This document shows, in pieces, positions 2,194-11,191 of a stretch of DNA of 11,422 bases. The notes beneath the pieces were generated by a model. It saw nothing but the letters and a program-made list of their open reading frames with translations, did not search any database and was not told the origin of the DNA. Every line of letters starts with the position of its first letter. The first letter of the stretch is position 1. A program made the translations under genes and the position numbers. The DNA comes from Ruminococcaceae bacterium UBA5396 (lineage in GTDB: Bacteria > Bacillota > Clostridia > Oscillospirales > Acutalibacteraceae): assembly GCA_002410715.1 (NCBI GenBank), contig DHOG01000046.1:1-11422 (forward strand), read 5' to 3'.

Positions 2194-2625
2194 ATGCTTA
2201 TTAAACAGCTTTCCATTTTTGTTGAGAATAAGGCGGGTCGGCTTGCCGAGATTACAGCTATTCTAGCCAAGGCGGGTATCGATATCCGTGCTTTGTCGAT
2301 CGCAGACACCACCAATTTCGGGATTCTGCGGCTGATTGTAGACAAACCGGATGAGGCAGAGAAGGTGCTCAAGGATGCCGGTCTTACCGTATCACTGACC
2401 AATGTGATTGGGGTAGGGATCCCCGATAAGCCGGGAGGGTTTTCGTCCGCAATGAAATGTCTTGCCGATGCCGGTATGGGCGTTGAGTATATGTATGCCT
2501 TTATTTCACGGGATCAGGGGCGTGCCTGTATGATTCTTCGTGTGGGTGATAATGAACGTGCGATTCAGGCACTGCAGCAGGATGGCGTGGAGATTCTCAC
2601 CAGCGACCGGATCTATAAAATGTGA
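2194..2625 (+). CDS. Tandem ACT-domain protein
   Basis: This 143-residue protein consists of two ACT domains and nothing else. ACT domains are small folds that bind amino acids or similar ligands and usually regulate metabolic enzymes. The first spans about residues 2-68 and shows the typical opening LSIFVENKAGRLAEITAIL, with the glycine-rich turn that follows strand 1. The second spans about 71-140 and contains VGVGIPDKPGGFSSAMKCL. No catalytic domain is attached, so it probably works as a free-standing sensor or as a partner of another enzyme. Relatives are often found beside phenylacetate-CoA ligase or indolepyruvate:ferredoxin oxidoreductase genes in anaerobes, but neither is present here. 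The ATG is preceded by GGGAGG at 7 nt spacing. It has its own promoter and terminator, hence is a single-gene transcript. The ligand cannot be inferred. Confidence 0.92.
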   Translation: MLIKQLSIFVENKAGRLAEITAILAKAGIDIRALSIADTTNFGILRLIVDKPDEAEKVLKDAGLTVSLTNVIGVGIPDKPGGFSSAMKCLADAGMGVEYMYAFISRDQGRACMILRVGDNERAIQALQQDGVEILTSDRIYKM

Positions 2626-4434: not shown

Positions 4435-5331
4435 TTATGATTCGGTGATAACCCCGCCATTTACATGAAGCACCTGACCGGTAACATACGCCGAATCATT
4501 GGTGGCAAGATAAACATAGGTGGGGGCAATTTCAAAAGGCTGTGCGGCGCGTTCCAGAGGAACATCTTGACCAAATTTTGTCACATCCTGTTCCGAAAAG
4601 CTGGATGTAATCAGAGGCGTCCATACGGGGCCGGGTGCAACCGCATTTACTCTTATACCGCTTGTAGCAAGAGACAATGCAAGCGAGCGGGTAAAGGATA
4701 CCACCGCACCCTTTGTAGCGGAATAGTCGATTAGCGTCGGACTGCCTTTATATGCTGTCACCGAGGTGGTGTTAATAATGGACGAGCCTTCTTTTAGATG
4801 AGGAAGAGCCGCCTTGGTCATATAAAAATAGCTAATAATATTGGTAGAAAAGGTGTTGCAAAGCTGCTCCGCTGTAATGTCCTTAATGCTGTTTTGCGGA
4901 TACTGCACTGCGATGTTGTTGACAAGCACATCGACACCGCCGAGCTCATTAACGGCTGCATCAACCACCTGCTGTGCGGAAGGCTCATTTTTCAGATCAC
5001 ACTGGACGGTGATACACCGCCTCCCGAATTTCTGAACCATGGTGACGGTCTCATTGGCGTCGGTCTGTTCACTGTAGTAAGGCACCACGATATCGGCCCC
5101 CTCTTTTGCGAACGCGACTGCCACAGCCTGACCGATCCCGCTGTCACCACCGGTGATGATTGCGACCAGCCCTTTCATTTTGTCCGAGCCTTTATATGTG
5201 GGATCATCGACAATGGGTTTCGGATTCATTTCCTGCTGTGTTCCGGGCTGCATATTCTGTTGCTGACGAGGAAAGCTGTCCGGCAGGCTTGCCGGTTGCT
5301 GTCCCGAATAAGTGTTTGTTGTATCTGCCAT
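4435..5331 (-). CDS. Short-chain dehydrogenase/reductase, general-stress type
   Basis: This is an NAD(P)-dependent oxidoreductase of the classical SDR superfamily, 298 residues. The nucleotide-binding loop TGGDSGIG is at 60-67, NNIA at 138-141, and the catalytic set is N164, S190, Y203 and K207 (YSATK). The C-terminal motif VTGQVLHVNGG is intact. The roughly 50-residue glutamine/proline-rich N-terminal extension ending in NPKPIVDDPTYKGSDKMKG is typical of the subgroup containing B. subtilis YdaD/YhxC/YhxD and E. coli YghA, several of which are stress-induced; the natural substrate is generally unknown. The ATG at 5331 has AAAGGTGG upstream at 9 nt. It is monocistronic, with a terminator after the stop. 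I see no clear promoter in the 86 bp upstream, only AT-rich sequence and a short ATTGG/CCAAT inverted repeat (5396-5411). Family certain, substrate unknown. Confidence 0.93.
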   Translation of the reverse strand: MADTTNTYSGQQPASLPDSFPRQQQNMQPGTQQEMNPKPIVDDPTYKGSDKMKGLVAIITGGDSGIGQAVAVAFAKEGADIVVPYYSEQTDANETVTMVQKFGRRCITVQCDLKNEPSAQQVVDAAVNELGGVDVLVNNIAVQYPQNSIKDITAEQLCNTFSTNIISYFYMTKAALPHLKEGSSIINTTSVTAYKGSPTLIDYSATKGAVVSFTRSLALSLATSGIRVNAVAPGPVWTPLITSSFSEQDVTKFGQDVPLERAAQPFEIAPTYVYLATNDSAYVTGQVLHVNGGVITES

Positions 5332-5417: not shown

Positions 5418-5463
5418 AAGTGGATGCTTTAAATGAATAGAAACTCACTTAAAGCATCCACTT
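5418..5463 (-). terminator. Long hairpin, probable terminator after the PHP-domain gene
   Basis: AAGTGGATGCTTTAA (5418-5432) is perfectly repeated inverted at 5449-5463, giving a 15-bp stem with a 16-base loop. Read on the minus strand the stem is followed by TATATTATT, a U-rich but interrupted tail. It lies about 80 bp beyond the stop of the last gene in the hydrogenase-sensor-like cluster and about 90 bp ahead of the SDR start. The large loop is unusual for a terminator, so a different role (operator or RNA stability element) is possible. Confidence 0.5.
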
Positions 5464-5543: not shown

Positions 5544-6284
5544 TTATGGATTATACGTTCCCCACTGACATGGCGTTTTACCGCTAAGCGCGGCAATCAA
5601 ATCAGCTGGACGGTTGTTCTCCAGTTCAATCCATGGTCCAAAGTCCTGTATCAGAGAAAGGCAGTGCGCATCTGAATTACATAAAAGCGGCCACCCCTGT
5701 ATGACGGGATGTTCTTTTACAAGCCTGTCTGTATCACCGAAACGTGATATCTCAAACGCATGGAATCCTACATCAGGTATGGTTCCGAGTGAAGCCACAA
5801 CGCTGTAAGAATCCCGATCAATATGGGCGGGAAAGGTGGATCCCCCATATTTTTGAACCAGCTGCGGAACATCGTCAATGCTGATGGATGACGCCGTAGT
5901 CAGCAGGGTTGAAAAAGTGCCGGTAACTCTGTCATCCTCATCCATAATGATCTGCGTGCCGAAAATATCAGATTGATTTTTAACAGGCGGCAGCGTAGCT
6001 TCAACCAAGGCATCAAACTCCATGGCGGCTTCAAGCGTCGGAAACAAACAGATAACGTGACATTCCTCGGCGGTGCAAAGCTCCATACCCGCAATTACGA
6101 TCAATCCGTTATTTTTTGCTGCTTTCACAATAGCGGGACAGTTTTTGCTGCTATTATGATCGGTAAGGGCAATCATATCCAGTCCCGCCAGCAGTGCCAT
6201 ATTTACAATATTGTTGGGTGTCATATCATCATCGCCGCAGGGAGACAGGCAGGAATGAATATGTAGATCATAGTACACTTTCAT
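5544..6284 (-). CDS. PHP-domain metal-dependent phosphoesterase
   Basis: PHP-domain proteins are metal-dependent phosphatases or nucleases acting in the cytoplasm. In this 246-residue protein the expected ligands are present: H8 and H10 (DLHIHSCLSPCG), D18, H43 (ALTDHN), E68 (GMELCT), H76, H154 (PAHID), D205 and H207 (NSDAH). It is a full-length single PHP domain without additional modules, and has no membrane segment. The ATG at 6284 is preceded by AGGA at 9 nt. It is the last gene of the five-gene cluster, 27 bp after the second DRTGG gene. Similar PHP proteins accompany regulatory/hydrogenase clusters in clostridia and Thermotogae. A role as a phosphatase opposing the RsbW-like kinase, or as a hydrolase of a small phosphorylated signal, is inference only. 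Family assignment is secure; substrate unknown. Confidence 0.9.
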   Translation of the reverse strand: MKVYYDLHIHSCLSPCGDDDMTPNNIVNMALLAGLDMIALTDHNSSKNCPAIVKAAKNNGLIVIAGMELCTAEECHVICLFPTLEAAMEFDALVEATLPPVKNQSDIFGTQIIMDEDDRVTGTFSTLLTTASSISIDDVPQLVQKYGGSTFPAHIDRDSYSVVASLGTIPDVGFHAFEISRFGDTDRLVKEHPVIQGWPLLCNSDAHCLSLIQDFGPWIELENNRPADLIAALSGKTPCQWGTYNP

Positions 6285-6311
6285 TTGTATTCATCCTGCC
6301 TTTCCGAATAA

Positions 6312-6683
6312 TCAATATCGATGGGTGGAAAAACCGTCAACATTATATTTATAATTATGCAGTAATCGGTCGATTTTCACCGCAAGCTGAAAAGACGTTT
6401 CCGAGCTGCGGAGAATCGGAATGCCCTCGGTCACGGCTCGCTCCCTTGCATCTTTATCCAAAGCCGCATCCTCGGAAAGTATAATGCAGGCGGTATCTGA
6501 AAGAACAGCGACGGCTATCGCATTCAGATTGCCCATTACGGTAATCCATGCGTCTCCCTCACGCGCCCTGCCCATTACCCAGCTTAAAAGATCACCTGCG
6601 TAACCGCCGGTAACCTCCCGTGATCCGTCTCCTTCAACCAATATTTCCAGATTCAATCTCTTTACAAGCTCGGTTACAGTCAT
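6312..6683 (-). CDS. DRTGG-domain protein (second of two)
   Basis: This 123-residue protein is essentially one DRTGG domain, a small fold named after a motif and otherwise found in the N-terminal part of some phosphotransacetylases and in CBS-domain proteins. The motif region is GGYAGDLLSWVMG at residues 26-38, with an alternating beta/alpha pattern after it (AIAVAVLSDTACIILSE, then GIPILRSS). No catalytic residues are known for the fold; it is thought to bind a ligand or a partner protein. The ATG at 6683 has GGAAAGGA at about 8 nt. It lies 32 bp after the hydrogenase-like gene and 27 bp before the PHP gene, so co-transcription is very likely. The tail (about 108-123, ending HRY) is basic and aromatic. 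Confidence 0.88.
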   Translation of the reverse strand: MTVTELVKRLNLEILVEGDGSREVTGGYAGDLLSWVMGRAREGDAWITVMGNLNAIAVAVLSDTACIILSEDAALDKDARERAVTEGIPILRSSETSFQLAVKIDRLLHNYKYNVDGFSTHRY

Positions 6684-6715
6684 TTTAAATGTCCTTTCCG
6701 GGATTTAATGTCTTT

Positions 6716-8044
6716 TTACTTCTTCCGAGTCTCCCTGAATTCACTCCCCGTTTCCGTTTCGGGGACAGTGCCTTCAAGCTGGGATAACTGACTTGCGATA
6801 TCCTGTATCTGCCGTCTCATAAGAAAGATACAATCGGTTTCCCGTGCAAGCCCCCGAACAATATCCTCGGCAAGCGCACGACAGGTGGGTGCCCCGCAAG
6901 ATCCGCAATCCAGCTTGGGCAGACGCTGTGCAATTATATCAATTTCATTCATAATGCGCATGGCATCCTCAACATTTTCGGCAAGGGTCATGACAGGCGC
7001 ATATTCTAGCGGTTCGGTCCATAAAAGCTGTCCCAGCCCTCCCGCATCATCCAATCTGTTGCAGGAGACCGGCAGATACTTTCGGAGTCTATGTATACGT
7101 GCTCTGGCGACATAACCGTTCTCGGCCGAAAAAATCCCACCGACACAGCCACCTGCGCAAGCGTTCAACTCTATAAAATCCAACTCCTGTAGCTTTTCAT
7201 CCTCCAGCTCCTCCAGAACCTTAATCACATTTTCGATTCCGTCTGCCGAAAGGTGGTTTTCATTCAGCAGTCCTGCTGCTTCCCCGCCGATTGACGACCA
7301 GCTAACGCCGATAATGCCCGAATGTGCCATGGGCTCAATATTTTCAATTTTATTCATACAGCCAACCAGCTTGGGATAAATATCGCTGATTGCCAGTACA
7401 CCATCAACATTAGAACGCTCGATACCAATCGGAACCCTGACGTCTGTTACCTTGGCCGCACAGGGTGATAAAAAGAAGATGCCAATTGCGTTGGTCGGCA
7501 GACCGGTGGTTTTTATTGCCTGCTCCCGGGCAAGCATTGCCGCAATTTCCATGGGAGCGCGCAGCGAAAGCACATGCTGGCACAGATCGGGAAATCTGAC
7601 GCGAATCAGGCGCACCACTGCCGGACAGGCAGAGCTGATTACCGGTTTTTTTAGCCTGCCGTCAGCCAAAAGCTGCCGGGTGGCATCCGATACAACCTCA
7701 GCCGCACGAGAAACCTCAAACACATCGTCAAACCCCAGCGATTTTAGCCCGTTCAGCACATAATCAATATCATTCAGACGGTTAAACTGACCATACAATG
7801 CGGGAGCGGGGAGCGCAACCGTATATTGAAAGTCATCCAGCATATCCAAGCTGTCATGCTGCGCCTTTTTGGCATGGTGAGGGCACACGCGGATACATTC
7901 ACCGCAGTCGATACAGCGTTCAGATATAATTTGCGCTTTACCAGCGCGGACACGTATCGCTTGTGTGGGGCAGCGCTTTATGCAGTTGGTGCAGCCGACG
8001 CATAAATCCCTGTCCAGCGTAACCGAATGAAAAAAGCGATCCAC
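6716..8044 (-). CDS. HydS-like iron-sulphur protein: [FeFe]-hydrogenase domain of sensory type
   Basis: This 442-residue cytoplasmic protein has three parts. A 2[4Fe-4S] ferredoxin domain uses C15, C18, C21, C25 and C44, C47, C50, C54. An [FeFe]-hydrogenase large-subunit domain (about 75-340) keeps the H-cluster cysteines C140 (SSACP), C195 (LSPCAAK), C296 and C300 (NACAGGC), and the conserved lysine K198. A C-terminal four-cysteine FeS domain (PF04060-like) has C380, C383, C388 and C405. The position of the proton-relay cysteine of catalytic enzymes (first C of TSCCP; C299 in C. pasteurianus CpI) is A139, and the cluster-flanking methionines (CpI M353, M497) are S193 and N294. I therefore infer an H-cluster sensor rather than a hydrogen-producing enzyme. 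Known HydS proteins usually carry a PAS domain at the C-terminus; here only about 30 polar residues follow the FeS domain. Start is GTG at 8044 with GGGGGAG upstream. Confidence 0.88.
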   Translation of the reverse strand: MDRFFHSVTLDRDLCVGCTNCIKRCPTQAIRVRAGKAQIISERCIDCGECIRVCPHHAKKAQHDSLDMLDDFQYTVALPAPALYGQFNRLNDIDYVLNGLKSLGFDDVFEVSRAAEVVSDATRQLLADGRLKKPVISSACPAVVRLIRVRFPDLCQHVLSLRAPMEIAAMLAREQAIKTTGLPTNAIGIFFLSPCAAKVTDVRVPIGIERSNVDGVLAISDIYPKLVGCMNKIENIEPMAHSGIIGVSWSSIGGEAAGLLNENHLSADGIENVIKVLEELEDEKLQELDFIELNACAGGCVGGIFSAENGYVARARIHRLRKYLPVSCNRLDDAGGLGQLLWTEPLEYAPVMTLAENVEDAMRIMNEIDIIAQRLPKLDCGSCGAPTCRALAEDIVRGLARETDCIFLMRRQIQDIASQLSQLEGTVPETETGSEFRETRKK

Positions 8045-8074
8045 AAATCTCTCCCCCTGTTAAAAAATTCAGCC

Positions 8075-8494
8075 CTACTCGGGCTTAATCAATACCGCCA
8101 TGGTCAATGTGGTACCCTTTCCGACAACGGTATCAATCTTGAGTATGTCTGTATATTTTTTGATATTTGGCAAGCCCATTCCGGCGCCGAAGCCCAGCGA
8201 GCGGATATTATCCGGGGCGGTTGACCATCCCTCTTGCATTGCCTTGTCCAAATCGGGAATTCCCGGACCGTCATCTGTCAGAACGGCTGTAATGCGGTCG
8301 GGCATGATCTCAACATCAACAACCCCTCCCCCCGCATGAATTGCCATGTTTATTTCTGCCTCATAAATTGAAATCGTCATTCTCCGTACAACATCGGAAT
8401 CAAAACCCAGCCGCTTTAGCTTGCGTTTTACTTCACCCGAAGCTTCCCCGGCGCGGGTAAAATCATCGCCCGGCACCTTATAATGCAATTTCAT
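8075..8494 (-). CDS. RsbW/SpoIIAB-like GHKL ATPase (anti-sigma/serine kinase type)
   Basis: This 139-residue single domain belongs to the GHKL ATPases related to RsbW, SpoIIAB and RsbT. The N-box is YEAEINMAIHA, with E45 and N49 in the positions of the catalytic base and Mg ligand of RsbW. The G1 box is DDGPGI (74-79), and the G2 box GFGAGMGLPN (101-110) forms the ATP lid. All residues needed for ATP binding and phosphotransfer are present. RsbW-type proteins phosphorylate an anti-sigma antagonist or bind a sigma factor, but no STAS-domain antagonist or sigma factor gene is next to it. Here it lies 30 bp ahead of the HydS-like gene, the usual arrangement in hydrogenase-associated clusters. 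It probably transmits the signal from the iron-sulphur protein (inference). Start is ATG at 8494, with AAAGGA about 11-12 nt upstream. Confidence 0.88.
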   Translation of the reverse strand: MKLHYKVPGDDFTRAGEASGEVKRKLKRLGFDSDVVRRMTISIYEAEINMAIHAGGGVVDVEIMPDRITAVLTDDGPGIPDLDKAMQEGWSTAPDNIRSLGFGAGMGLPNIKKYTDILKIDTVVGKGTTLTMAVLIKPE

Positions 8495-8517
8495 TTAAGA
8501 TTCATGTCCTTTCGCCA

Positions 8518-8547
8518 GGATTTATGTCATGGAACGAGCATAAATCC
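8518..8547. repeat. 9-bp inverted repeat ahead of the RsbW-like gene
   Basis: GGATTTATG (8518-8526) and CATAAATCC (8539-8547) form a perfect 9-bp inverted repeat with a 12-base spacer. It sits in the 139-bp gap between the first DRTGG gene and the ATPase gene, about 10 bp upstream of the ATPase ribosome binding site. No T-run follows, so it is not a terminator. It could be an operator or an mRNA processing or stabilising structure. Confidence 0.45.
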
Positions 8548-8633
8548 AATTTTATAAAAGGGCGTATCCTTCATCACATGCCATTATCGGCAATGCCTAT
8601 ATATCACCGGTTGCCCGAAACTGCTTCCCGTGG

Positions 8634-8972
8634 TTATCCGCGAAGCCCCGCTTCATAAAGCATGCCACATGCCGGAAACATGCGAAGTGGCGTTTTCATC
8701 AAAACAATCCCCCGGTCACAGGCAAGATCGATGATTTCCTGACTCGGCTCTTTGCCGCGCACAAAAACAATACATACCATGTCCATCATGTCAGCAGTCC
8801 TGACCACCTGCGGATTTACAAGTCCGGTCAGCAATACAGACTGGTCTTTGACGAACGCCAATACATCGCTCATCATATCGCTGCCACAGGCATTGTGAAC
8901 CTCATTTTCTAGATGGTCTTGTCCTGAAATCACTTTGGCATTCAGAATATTTTGAACATCAGATATTGTCAT
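8634..8972 (-). CDS. DRTGG-domain protein (first gene of the cluster)
   Basis: This 112-residue protein starts MTISDVQNILNAKVISG and has the domain motif ACGSDMMSDVLAF at 28-40, followed by the LLTGLVNPQVVRTA and MVCIVFVRGK strands typical of DRTGG folds. The frame stays open upstream to 9083, but the start is set at the ATG at 8972 for two reasons: GGAG lies 5 nt before it, and the promoter elements of the operon (9055-9083) fall inside the longer reading. It is the first gene of the five-gene cluster; 139 bp separate it from the ATPase gene, the largest gap within the cluster. It is only distantly similar to the second DRTGG protein at 6312-6683, so the two are probably different subunits rather than a recent duplicate. 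No enzyme activity is expected; ligand binding or partner binding is the likely role. Confidence 0.87.
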   Translation of the reverse strand: MTISDVQNILNAKVISGQDHLENEVHNACGSDMMSDVLAFVKDQSVLLTGLVNPQVVRTADMMDMVCIVFVRGKEPSQEIIDLACDRGIVLMKTPLRMFPACGMLYEAGLRG

Positions 8973-9054
8973 AAAAGCTCCATCCCTTTCTGCCGTCGGG
9001 AATTTTGCCGTCAGGCATATCCCTCTCCCATAAGTTACGATCCTGCTATAGTAT

Positions 9055-9083
9055 AATATACACGCTTTACAGCACCGCTGCAA
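9055..9083 (-). promoter_or_regulatory. Sigma-A-like promoter of the hydrogenase-sensor-like cluster
   Basis: On the minus strand, TTGCAG (9078-9083) and TATATT (9055-9060) are 17 bp apart. Transcription would start near 9048, giving a leader of about 75 nt before the ATG at 8972. No Rex-type palindrome is seen. Directly upstream of the -35 lies a direct repeat that could bind an activator. Confidence 0.6.
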
Positions 9084-9242: not shown

Positions 9243-10688
9243 ATGGTTCATGTCCTCTACGGCATGAATCCCGGAAAGGACATTGGTTTTTATATGTGGA
9301 TTGATACGGGAATGGTGGCGCTGTATCTTGCCGTGCTGATTGGAATTGGACTGCGGGGACGGGTAAAGGATGTAAAAGGCTTTACTGCTGCCGGTGGTAA
9401 ATACGGAACGCTGACAATATTCGCGTCGCTGTCAGCCTCCTATATCGGCGGCGGTTACTCCTCAGGCAATGCTGCCGAGGCTTTTTCCGAAGGGATCGGC
9501 ATGACGATTGCGCTGTTCGGATTCAGCCTATCAACCATCCTGATTGGCAAATACCTTGTCCCCGGTGTACGAAGATTTGAGGGCGAGGCAACGGTTGGCG
9601 GGATAATCGGTGTTTGCTATGGGCGAGCTGCAAGGGTTTTGACAGGTATATTCTCATTTGTGTGCTGCGCGGGCGTTGTCGGGGCTCAGATGGGGGCGAT
9701 CGGGCTGGTGTTCAATGTACTGCTCGGCATTCCCCCAAGGCTGGGTATCCTTATCGGATGCGGGATTGTGCTGCTATATTCCACATCCGGCGGACTGCAG
9801 TCTGTCATCATGGCAGATCTGGTTCAATTTGCTATGCTGGCGGTGGGAATGCCGCTGCTACTTATCATGGCGTTGAACCGTACAGGAGGCACCGAAGCCA
9901 TGCTGCAGACATTGCCCTCCGGCTACTTAAATCCCTTCAACGGCACCACACCCTCCGGCTTTTTCTCGATGTTTATTACCATGATGTTGGGCGAAGCGCT
10001 TGCTCCGCCCTATACACAGCGCCTACTTATCGGACGCAACCCGAAGGGAACGGCGAGAGCCACTATTTTCAGCGGTCTGTTTTCTGTTCCGTTTTTTATT
10101 ATTACAGGCATGATCGGCATGGCGGCATATTCTCTCCATGTGACGGGTGACGCCAGAGCTGCAATGCCGGCTCTGGTGATGGAAATCCTCCCCACGGGCA
10201 TACGAGGACTGGTGATGGCATCCATGGTATCCATCATTTTGTCGGCCGCCGACGGATTTTTAAACGGTGCTTCGGTAGGACTTGTCTGTGATACAGTGCG
10301 GGTACTGCGCCCCGACATGTCGGGCAGGGCAGAGCTCTGGTGGCTTCGAGCGGTAAATCTTGCAACCGGTATGGCGGCAGTCGCCGTGGCTTTTGTTCTG
10401 CCGGATATTTTCAATATCCTGGTGCTGGCCTACTCGTTCTGGTCTCCGCTGATCCTGGTTCCGCTGGCAGCCGCCATGCTGGGGGTGAAATCCAACGGAC
10501 GCGCCTTCCGGTACGCTTTGCTGACAGGGCTTTTCTCTTGCCTTGTTTGGAATTATGTTCTGCACAAGCCCCTCAATATTGATGGCGCTGTTGTTGGTAT
10601 TTTATGCAACCTGCTTGTGTTCACCGCCTGTACGCGGAGCTATCAGAAATATCGGGTACAGCGGGTTATCATGTGCAGGCAAAAGTAA
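9243..10688 (+). CDS. Sodium:solute symporter (SSS family)
   Basis: This 481-residue integral membrane protein of the solute:sodium symporter family (PF00474) couples sodium entry to uptake of an organic solute. About 12-13 hydrophobic segments cover the chain. Family landmarks are the first core helix with ASLSASYIGGGYSSGNAAEA (61-80), the block LLYSTSGGLQSVIMADLVQF (177-196), and the helix ASMVSIILSAADGFLNGASV (327-346). In this helix the serine/threonine pair that coordinates sodium in many relatives reads LSAAD. The substrate cannot be predicted; pantothenate, proline, sugar and carboxylate transporters all share this fold. The start is uncertain: the ATG at 9243 has GGAGG 15 nt upstream, while the in-frame ATG at 9294 (protein beginning MWIDTGMVALYL) has AAGGA 13 nt upstream and gives a more usual N-terminus. 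It is followed after 17 bp by the amidase-like gene. Confidence 0.92.
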   Translation: MVHVLYGMNPGKDIGFYMWIDTGMVALYLAVLIGIGLRGRVKDVKGFTAAGGKYGTLTIFASLSASYIGGGYSSGNAAEAFSEGIGMTIALFGFSLSTILIGKYLVPGVRRFEGEATVGGIIGVCYGRAARVLTGIFSFVCCAGVVGAQMGAIGLVFNVLLGIPPRLGILIGCGIVLLYSTSGGLQSVIMADLVQFAMLAVGMPLLLIMALNRTGGTEAMLQTLPSGYLNPFNGTTPSGFFSMFITMMLGEALAPPYTQRLLIGRNPKGTARATIFSGLFSVPFFIITGMIGMAAYSLHVTGDARAAMPALVMEILPTGIRGLVMASMVSIILSAADGFLNGASVGLVCDTVRVLRPDMSGRAELWWLRAVNLATGMAAVAVAFVLPDIFNILVLAYSFWSPLILVPLAAAMLGVKSNGRAFRYALLTGLFSCLVWNYVLHKPLNIDGAVVGILCNLLVFTACTRSYQKYRVQRVIMCRQK

Positions 10689-10705
10689 GCAAAGGAGAGA
10701 ATTCC

Positions 10706-11191
10706 ATGCCCTATAACCGCGCGAAAGCCGTCGCCTACGCACACCGCTGGGCATTTGGCCGAAATCCTGCATACGGTGACTTTTCAAAAATGGGGGGCGA
10801 CTGCACCAACTTTATTTCCCAGTGTATTCATGCAGGCGGAGCCGCAATGAATTATACACCCAACACAGGCTGGTACTACAACAGCTTGAACAGCCGTGCG
10901 CCGGCGTGGACCGGTGTTGAGTTTCTATACCGTTTCTTGTTGAATAACCGCGGAAAAGGGCCGTATGCCACAAAAGCATCTGCGGGTGAAATGCATCCCG
11001 GTGATGTGGTTCAGCTTTCATTTGACGGAGGAAATCGCTTTGGTCACAGCCTGTTTGTCGTGAAAACAGGTGATCCGCCCAAAAATAGTAATATTCTGAT
11101 TGCCACCCATACATTTGACAGCGACAACCGTCGGCTTGACAGCTGGGAGGATGTCGTTTATCGCTACCTGCATATTATGGGAACACGTTAA
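10706..11191 (+). CDS. Amidase_6-type (NlpC/P60-like fold) putative amidase
   Basis: This 161-residue protein matches the Amidase_6 family (PF12671), a putative cysteine amidase group related to NlpC/P60 peptidases. It begins MPYNRAKAVAYAHRWAFGRN, the classical opening of the family. The presumed nucleophile is C33 in GGDCTNFISQC, and the presumed partner histidine is H114 in RFGHSLFVV; H135 (ATHTFDSD) may be the third residue. There is no signal peptide or membrane segment, so it probably acts in the cytoplasm or in the mother cell or spore rather than on the mature wall. The ATG at 10706 is chosen because AAAGGAGAG lies just before it; the open frame reaches back to 10604 inside the symporter gene. 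It is 17 bp downstream of the symporter and shares its terminator, so the two are likely co-transcribed. The substrate is unknown. Confidence 0.87.
   Translation: MPYNRAKAVAYAHRWAFGRNPAYGDFSKMGGDCTNFISQCIHAGGAAMNYTPNTGWYYNSLNSRAPAWTGVEFLYRFLLNNRGKGPYATKASAGEMHPGDVVQLSFDGGNRFGHSLFVVKTGDPPKNSNILIATHTFDSDNRRLDSWEDVVYRYLHIMGTR

What the first reader, a model, noticed from the sequence alone, without database searches (positions are those of the whole stretch)
5544..9083. Five-gene hydrogenase-sensor-like module without a catalytic hydrogenase next to it
DRTGG - RsbW-like ATPase - HydS-like iron-sulphur protein - DRTGG - PHP phosphoesterase all lie on one strand with 27-139 bp gaps, one promoter ahead and a hairpin behind. 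From general knowledge, this gene set accompanies NuoE/NuoF-like and HydA genes in clostridia and Thermotogae. Here a short-chain dehydrogenase, with a hairpin in between, follows instead, and a divergent symporter lies on the other side. The module therefore looks self-contained: an H2/redox sensor (iron-sulphur protein), a kinase-like output (ATPase), two ligand-binding DRTGG subunits and a possible phosphatase (PHP). The biochemical function of the set has, as far as I know, not been worked out as a signalling system.
Basis: partly seen in the sequence, partly recalled or inferred. Interest (0 to 1): 0.8.

Follow-up and report, generated by a model that had tools for sequence, protein, structure and literature searches.

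The report
Hydrogen-sensor hydrogenase with conserved signalling partners
Many fermenting anaerobic bacteria carry a five-gene set in which a sensor-type hydrogenase travels with a kinase-like ATPase, two small DRTGG proteins and a PHP phosphoesterase, which gives concrete candidate partners for a hydrogen sensor whose signalling route is not yet known.

Summary
Corrections: the 'iron-sulphur protein' is a group D (M2e) [FeFe]-hydrogenase with all H-cluster ligands; the first DRTGG gene starts at 8972; no promoter was found. The order DRTGG-ATPase-HydS-DRTGG-PHP is complete in 75 of 81 class loci mapped and 69 of 80 named loci. Presence is nearly all-or-none: HydS, ATPase, DRTGG-A and PHP are all in 131 of 291 class genomes, none in 150. 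Natural fusions chain DRTGG-ATPase, ATPase-HydS and HydS-DRTGG. Usually the set adjoins bifurcating hydABC, in a few lineages rnf; in 18 of 75 complete class loci, this one included, neither was seen, while a trimeric-type HydA lies elsewhere (22 of 22 genomes tested). So 'no hydrogenase next to it' is true here but a minority state. Best reading: a partner-switching-like H2/redox sensor in which HydS controls a SpoIIAB-type kinase acting on an invariant DRTGG serine. Gene set, co-occurrence, fusions, motifs and folds are shown; kinase activity, substrate, PHP role and H2 signal are inferred. Passages read know HydS beside a kinase-like gene and hydABC, not this partner set.

The parts
8634..8972 (-).
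   Evidence: PF07085 28.4 bits over cut-off 25.2; aligned with 38 relatives, D32 and S35 invariant
8868..8870 (-). codon of the invariant Ser35 of DRTGG-A (D-x-x-S motif), candidate phospho-acceptor
   Evidence: invariant in 39 sequences; the matching Ser36 of a fused homologue is residue 2 of predicted helix 35-40; phosphorylation is inferred
8075..8494 (-). SpoIIAB/RsbW-type ATPase (139 aa), kinase-like
6716..8044 (-). HydS, group D (M2e) [FeFe]-hydrogenase, 442 aa, GTG start
   Evidence: PF02906 104.7 bits, PF04060, Fer4; H-cluster Cys kept, C299 to Ala, M353 to Ser, group D proton-path residues kept (rules from passages)
6312..6683 (-). DRTGG-B (123 aa)
   Evidence: PF07085 27.8 bits over 25.2; D31, S34, M37, W46, T48, N54, A83 invariant in 42 sequences
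6582..6584 (-). codon of the invariant Ser34 of DRTGG-B (D-x-x-S motif)
   Evidence: invariant in 42 sequences; phosphorylation is inferred
5544..6284 (-). PHP-domain phosphoesterase (246 aa)
   Evidence: PF02811 39.6 bits over 26.4; H8, H10, D42, H43, E68, H76, H154, D205, H207 invariant in 25 sequences; that they bind metal is inferred from the family
5418..5463 (-). hairpin, likely end of the transcription unit (stem of 20 pairs, weak T tail)
   Evidence: pattern match only

Best explanation
The set is a partner-switching-like H2/redox sensing unit. HydS, a slow group D [FeFe]-hydrogenase, is the sensor: H2 at its H-cluster changes its state. It is bound to a SpoIIAB-type ATPase, whose kinase activity or partner choice it controls. 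The ATPase's partners are the two DRTGG proteins rather than a STAS protein; the serine of their D-x-x-S motif, at the start of a helix, is the likely phospho-acceptor. PHP probably reverses the modification or removes a nucleotide. The output acts on the cell's ferredoxin/NAD electron-flow complexes: HydABC in most lineages and Rnf in some, possibly through their shared NADH/FMN (Complex1_51K-SLBB) subunit. Here the unit stands apart from its target and would act in trans. Shown: gene set, co-occurrence, fusions, motif conservation, folds, neighbouring operons. Inferred: H2 as signal, kinase activity, the acceptor serine, the PHP role and direct action on the complexes.
Against: No activity is shown. 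To my knowledge no DRTGG domain has been shown to be phosphorylated. Fusion and neighbourhood do not prove contact; pTM of the two fused models is 0.75 and 0.73, so domain placement is not settled. No PP2C, STAS or sigma factor was found among the 9 window proteins scanned. The set is not rigid: in 120 non-window loci PHP is missing from the fetched stretch in 13, DRTGG-A in 8, DRTGG-B in 7, ATPase in 2 (some at contig ends), and L157 and L171 have only ATPase and HydS. The families most like the PHP protein include nucleases and nucleotide phosphatases. PMC13104023 (passages) finds the C-terminal cluster of TamHydS not reduced under H2, so the signal path inside HydS is open. SiaC resembles anti-sigma antagonists, so it is no precedent for DRTGG as substrate. 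Related genomes are not independent, so the co-occurrence P is nominal.
Confidence: 0.5

Rival explanations
1. Anti-sigma switch: the ATPase binds a sigma factor encoded elsewhere; HydS and the DRTGG proteins govern its release, so the output is transcription of hyd, rnf and fermentation genes.
For: Closest solved relatives are anti-sigma F and RsbW; NCBIfam's best match is spIIAB; several relatives are named anti-sigma regulatory factor or RsbT.
Against: The spIIAB match is 45.6 bits against a cut-off of 135, so it is not that orthologue. No sigma factor or STAS protein among the 9 window proteins scanned; genes elsewhere were not searched. The likely target operons lie directly beside the unit in most loci, which suits direct control as well.
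Confidence: 0.22
2. Assembly or repair accessory of the bifurcating hydrogenase: the set helps mature or stabilise HydABC.
For: Mostly upstream of, divergent from, or inside the hyd operon; GHKL ATPases can be chaperone-like (general knowledge).
Against: 108 of 240 class genomes with a HydA match have no HydS; the set also occurs beside rnf and alone. HydS itself keeps an H-cluster site, and a match to the maturase HydF is in this genome, partial.
Confidence: 0.1
3. Nucleotide-messenger circuit: PHP and the DRTGG proteins handle a small nucleotide, and HydS with the ATPase sets its level or its binding.
For: PHP best matches include nucleoside bisphosphate phosphatase, RNase and TrlF families and, in the PDB, a 5'-3' exoribonuclease and a putative metal-dependent phosphoesterase; DRTGG also occurs in a CBS-DRTGG pyrophosphatase.
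Against: No nucleotide synthetase in the set; in 7 loci PHP is missing while ATPase and at least one DRTGG gene are mapped and the contig does not end there (L044, L071, L092, L153, L166, L167, L185), though in two of those genomes PHP lies elsewhere (G021, G010).
Confidence: 0.13
4. Plain redox enzyme: HydS is a minor catalyst and the other genes are hitch-hikers of the operon.
For: TamHydS does turn over H2, slowly (PMC10407848, PMC8163306, passages).
Against: Near all-or-none presence, fusions, and the four partners staying together when HydS has left.
Confidence: 0.05

Closest known systems
Group D (M2e) sensory [FeFe]-hydrogenase TamHydS of Thermoanaerobacter mathranii and its locus (PMC8163306, passages)
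   Same: Group D residue signature. Two loci of unnamed genus g365 match 13/13 (L115) and 12/13 (L150) of the TamHydS residues named in the papers; named Thermoanaerobacter thermocopriae (L187) has the same module followed by hydABC. [quoted passage not shown]
   Different: The paper names the other flanking gene an AraC family regulator; in L150 and L187 HydS is flanked by the ATPase and a DRTGG protein (ORFs of 130 and 113 aa), so I suspect a misannotation (T. mathranii itself was not fetched). Here the module is away from hydABC.
SpoIIAB/RsbW partner-switching kinases (SpoIIAA-SpoIIAB-sigmaF; RsbV-RsbW-sigmaB)
   Same: Fold and ATP-site motifs of the ATPase.
   Different: No STAS antagonist, sigma factor or PP2C in the set; DRTGG and PHP take their place; the input would be a hydrogenase.
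SiaABC threonine-phosphorylation switch of Pseudomonas aeruginosa (PMC7647112, passages)
   Same: A kinase/partner switch whose target site lies at a helix N-terminus; a chain of the SiaB-SiaC complex matches the ATPase part of the model.
   Different: SiaC resembles anti-sigma antagonists, not DRTGG; phosphatase is PP2C; sensor unrelated.
Group C HydS-PAS (TmHydS) and the hfsABCD system
   Same: Putative H2-sensing [FeFe]-hydrogenases near catalytic ones (passages).
   Different: They carry a PAS domain, and hfs a serine-phosphatase-like HfsC; no PAS here.

Membership tests
Group D (M2e) [FeFe]-hydrogenase | four H-cluster cysteines (C300, C355, C499, C503 of CpI) | tested here: met
   present in the window protein and in 121 of 121 aligned loci
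Group D (M2e) [FeFe]-hydrogenase | C299 replaced, mostly by Ala, and M353 replaced by Ser/Thr | tested here: met
   window Ala139 and Ser193; in the set 98/121 Ala and 119/121 Ser or Thr; rule from PMC10407848 and PMC8163306 passages
Group D (M2e) [FeFe]-hydrogenase | group D proton path E252, D265, E289 (S249 moderately conserved) | tested here: met
   window E255, D268, E292; kept in 113, 110 and 121 of 121. S249 is Ile in the window, and the M497 position is Asn (Leu in TamHydS)
Group D (M2e) [FeFe]-hydrogenase | C-terminal Cx2Cx4Cx16C and no PAS domain | tested here: met
   C380, C383, C388, C405; PF04060 and no PAS in the Pfam scan
Group D (M2e) [FeFe]-hydrogenase | clusters with group D in a tree with groups A, B, C | not tested
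   no reference tree with all groups was built
Group D (M2e) [FeFe]-hydrogenase | low H2 activity with an H-cluster | not testable with these tools
   needs protein; a partial HydF match with two in-frame TAGs is in the genome
SpoIIAB/RsbW anti-sigma kinase family | GHKL/HATPase_c_2 fold with N, G1 and G2 boxes | tested here: met
SpoIIAB (equivalog) | NCBIfam spIIAB score at or above its cut-off | tested here: not met
   45.6 bits against 135
Classical partner-switching system | STAS-domain antagonist encoded with the kinase | tested here: not met
   DRTGG instead; no STAS in the 9 window proteins scanned
Classical partner-switching system | PP2C phosphatase encoded with the kinase | tested here: not met
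   PHP instead; no PP2C in the 9 window proteins scanned; a distant gene is not excluded
Classical partner-switching system | ATP-dependent Ser/Thr phosphorylation of the partner | not testable with these tools
   needs an assay
DRTGG domain | Pfam PF07085 over its cut-off; DRTGG fold | tested here: met
PHP phosphoesterase | PF02811 over its cut-off and conserved His/Asp/Glu | tested here: met
   39.6 bits against 26.4; nine such residues invariant in 25 sequences

The most novel reading that the evidence does not exclude
A new class of partner switch: a hydrogenase H-cluster drives a SpoIIAB-type kinase that phosphorylates DRTGG proteins (not STAS), and these act directly on the NADH-side subunit shared by the bifurcating hydrogenase and the Rnf complex, so that one H2 sensor sets ferredoxin/NADH flow without a sigma factor.
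Probability: 0.25. Interest if true: 0.88.

Novelty: new variant of a known kind. Interest (0 to 1): 0.68.

Why it matters
How group D (and C) sensory hydrogenases pass on an H2 signal is an open question; a 2026 paper says that identifying the interaction partners is critical (PMC13104023, passages). The near all-or-none gene set and the natural fusions name candidate partners and make the question directly testable, with fused proteins as ready-made complexes. If right, it would show how fermenting Clostridia, many of them from rumen and gut, adjust H2 output and Rnf to H2 pressure.

Tried and rejected
Assembly-factor reading: lowered, because 108 of 240 HydA-bearing class genomes lack HydS. 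Window flanks as a clue to the target: BLASTP of 7 window flank proteins against 1985 ORFs of 29 other module loci gave no hit at 1e-15, while HydS and PHP as controls gave 30 and 29 hits in the same database; so the standalone position is not syntenic with those loci. A first profile iteration merged HydS with HydA and was redone with single-sequence scores. A HydS tree rooted at its midpoint split the fusions oddly and was re-rooted on L113; it still needs 4 changes for ATPase-HydS fusions against 2 in the ATPase tree, and only a subsample (about every second database hit) was used, so the number of fusion origins is uncertain. AF2 models of two fused homologues give good folds but pTM of 0.73-0.75, not enough for a docking pose. 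The structural list for the ATPase-HydS model is filled by the hydrogenase domain. A Rex or other operator site was not looked for. Calusinska 2010 and Voloshyn 2024 were not held. Searches for the set in print: 0 papers; 1, about another protein; no passage that I saw describes it, but the library holds open-licence papers only and I read passages, not whole texts.
Full report
What is there. The minus strand holds DRTGG-A (8634-8972), a SpoIIAB/RsbW-type ATPase (8075-8494), HydS (6716-8044), DRTGG-B (6312-6683) and a PHP phosphoesterase (5544-6284), with gaps of 139, 30, 32 and 27 bp. A hairpin of 20 pairs lies behind PHP at 5418-5463; the promoter scan lists no minus-strand site between 8972 and 9243. 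The window is a whole contig (C184) of a 3.16 Mb, 210-contig, 73% complete genome. Close relatives of HydS include one named Oscillospiraceae MAG (P0010, 85% identity), so the host is probably a clostridium of that kind; this is an inference.

HydS is a group D hydrogenase. All four H-cluster cysteines are there, C299 of CpI is Ala and M353 is Ser, the C-terminal Cx2Cx4Cx16C is there, PAS is absent, and the group D proton-path residues E252, D265 and E289 are kept (rules from passages of PMC10407848, PMC11803613 and PMC8163306). Across 121 mapped loci the H-cluster ligands are in 121, E289 in 121, E252 in 113, D265 in 110. Against the signature, S249 is Ile and the M497 position Asn in the window. 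No tree with reference groups was built. The genome also has NuoE, HATPase, ferredoxin-like, NuoF and HydA genes in a row on contig C68, a partial HydF match and an RnfC. The Pfam search found two Fe_hyd_lg_C matches in this incomplete genome, HydA and HydS.

Is the set real? HydS matches at E 1e-60 or better occur in 138 of 291 class genomes and 158 of 398 phylum genomes (the samples share genomes, and only the best 4-5 candidates per genome were scored). I chose 80 of the 139 class places, for spread and contig length. With the window, 75 of 81 loci have all five genes in the same order and strand. I chose 40 more phylum loci, three of them because their long frames hinted at fusions; 30 of 40 are complete, fusions counted. 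They include Thermoanaerobacter thermocopriae, Thermoanaerobacterium butyriciformans, Herbivorax, Christensenella hongkongensis and a Syntrophorhabdales MAG. In the 120 class and phylum loci without the window, PHP is missing from the fetched stretch in 13, DRTGG-A in 8, DRTGG-B in 7, the ATPase in 2, some at contig ends. L157 and L171 show ATPase and HydS only.

The dependence works both ways. Profiles of the ATPase, DRTGG-A and PHP, searched in the same 291 genomes, hit 139, 137 and 135 at cut-offs of 1e-25, 1e-20 and 1e-40. All four (with HydS) are in 131 genomes, none in 150, a partial set in 10. The ATPase is directly upstream of HydS on the same strand in 132 of 139 places; five of the seven others are at contig edges. 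In the remaining two, G211 and G269, HydS lies elsewhere, yet DRTGG-A, ATPase, DRTGG-B and PHP are still side by side, with 266 and 65 bp where HydS would be, beside RnfC. G226 has ATPase, DRTGG-B and PHP beside NuoE, HATPase, Fd and NuoF genes but no HydS match. The hypergeometric P of 4e-77 ignores kinship and is nominal.

Natural fusions. L159 fuses DRTGG-A to the ATPase, L149 the ATPase to HydS, L147 and L148 HydS to DRTGG-B, with full domain matches. In the protein database all 120 listed hits to the L159 fusion are DRTGG+ATPase; of the 120 listed for L149, 40 are ATPase+HydS and 2 HydS+DRTGG (both lists are the top of longer ones). The 120 listed for the window's HydS are all unfused. 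Parsimony counts on FastTree trees of a subsample are 6 changes for DRTGG+ATPase, 2 (ATPase tree) or 4 (HydS tree) for ATPase+HydS and 2 for HydS+DRTGG. So four of the five genes are chained by fusion; no PHP fusion was seen in the 200 non-window loci scanned.

What it sits beside. Fifty-seven of the 75 complete class loci have at least two genes that match the NuoE, HATPase, Fd, NuoF or HydA profiles in the fetched stretch; two of these, L106 and L112, are rnf. The module lies upstream of the hyd operon, divergent from it, downstream of it, or inside it between NuoE and the second HATPase. In L112, L172 and L173, and in the HydS-less L267 and L268, the next oxidoreductase gene is RnfC (541-574 bits, cut-off 246), and in L112 all six rnfCDGEAB genes were named; L106 has the same gene sizes and L177 a like map only. 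Eighteen of the 75, the window included, stand alone in the fetched stretch; 13 of these have at least 3 kb on both sides of HydS. All 22 genomes tested (these 18 and G021, G010, G211, G269) have a trimeric-type HydA match elsewhere. In G021 and G010 the set is split and PHP lies on the HydA contig. HydA matches at 1e-140 are in 240 of 291 genomes; 132 of the 138 HydS genomes are among them, and 108 have HydA without HydS. NuoF of hydABC and RnfC share Complex1_51K, SLBB and Fer4, which makes that subunit a candidate common target; this is inference.

What was known. Passages of PMC3561251, PMC3608648 and PMC8163306 say that group D hydrogenases lie upstream of trimeric ones, with a kinase-like gene, and are called sensory partly by context. 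[quoted passage not shown] in my Thermoanaerobacter loci the neighbours are the ATPase and a DRTGG protein. PMC13104023 (passages) reports that the C-terminal cluster is not reduced under H2 and calls for the partners. No passage that I saw describes the DRTGG/PHP set, its fusions or its place at rnf (searches).

Verdict. A real, widespread, nearly all-or-none module around a group D sensory hydrogenase; the window's copy is a detached version. The signalling reading is plausible and now testable, but unproven.

Noticed in passing
L267:7381-9497 and L268:7144-9077: The four partner genes without HydS between ATPase and DRTGG-B, beside RnfC; HydS lies elsewhere in the same genomes (L111, L269).
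   Followed up: partly
L112:11192-16938, L172, L173: The whole module sits upstream of RnfC instead of hydABC (all six rnf genes named in L112); the second HATPase is present in two of the three.
   Followed up: partly
L003:4026-4595 (C68) and relatives: A second, roughly 180-190 aa HATPase_c protein belongs to the hyd operon and also accompanies rnf in some loci; its role is unknown.
   Followed up: no
L271 (G226): ATPase, DRTGG-B and PHP beside NuoE, HATPase, Fd and NuoF genes, with no HydS match in that genome at 1e-60.
   Followed up: partly
L042 and L050, between HydS and DRTGG-B: 4.1-4.4 kb inserted between HydS and DRTGG-B; contents not examined.
   Followed up: no
G000:C107:381-1097 (L139): The HydF match is partial (model positions 154-392), near a contig start, and holds two in-frame TAG codons; not examined further.
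   Followed up: no
window 2194-2625, 4435-5331, 9243-10688, 10604-11191: ACT_8 protein, SDR oxidoreductase, SSF symporter and Amidase_6 protein around the module; no sign of shared function, and no BLASTP hit at 1e-15 in 29 other module loci.
   Followed up: partly
PMC8163306 versus L150, L187: The AraC regulator reported beside TamHydS may be a misnamed DRTGG protein; T. mathranii itself was not fetched by name.
   Followed up: partly
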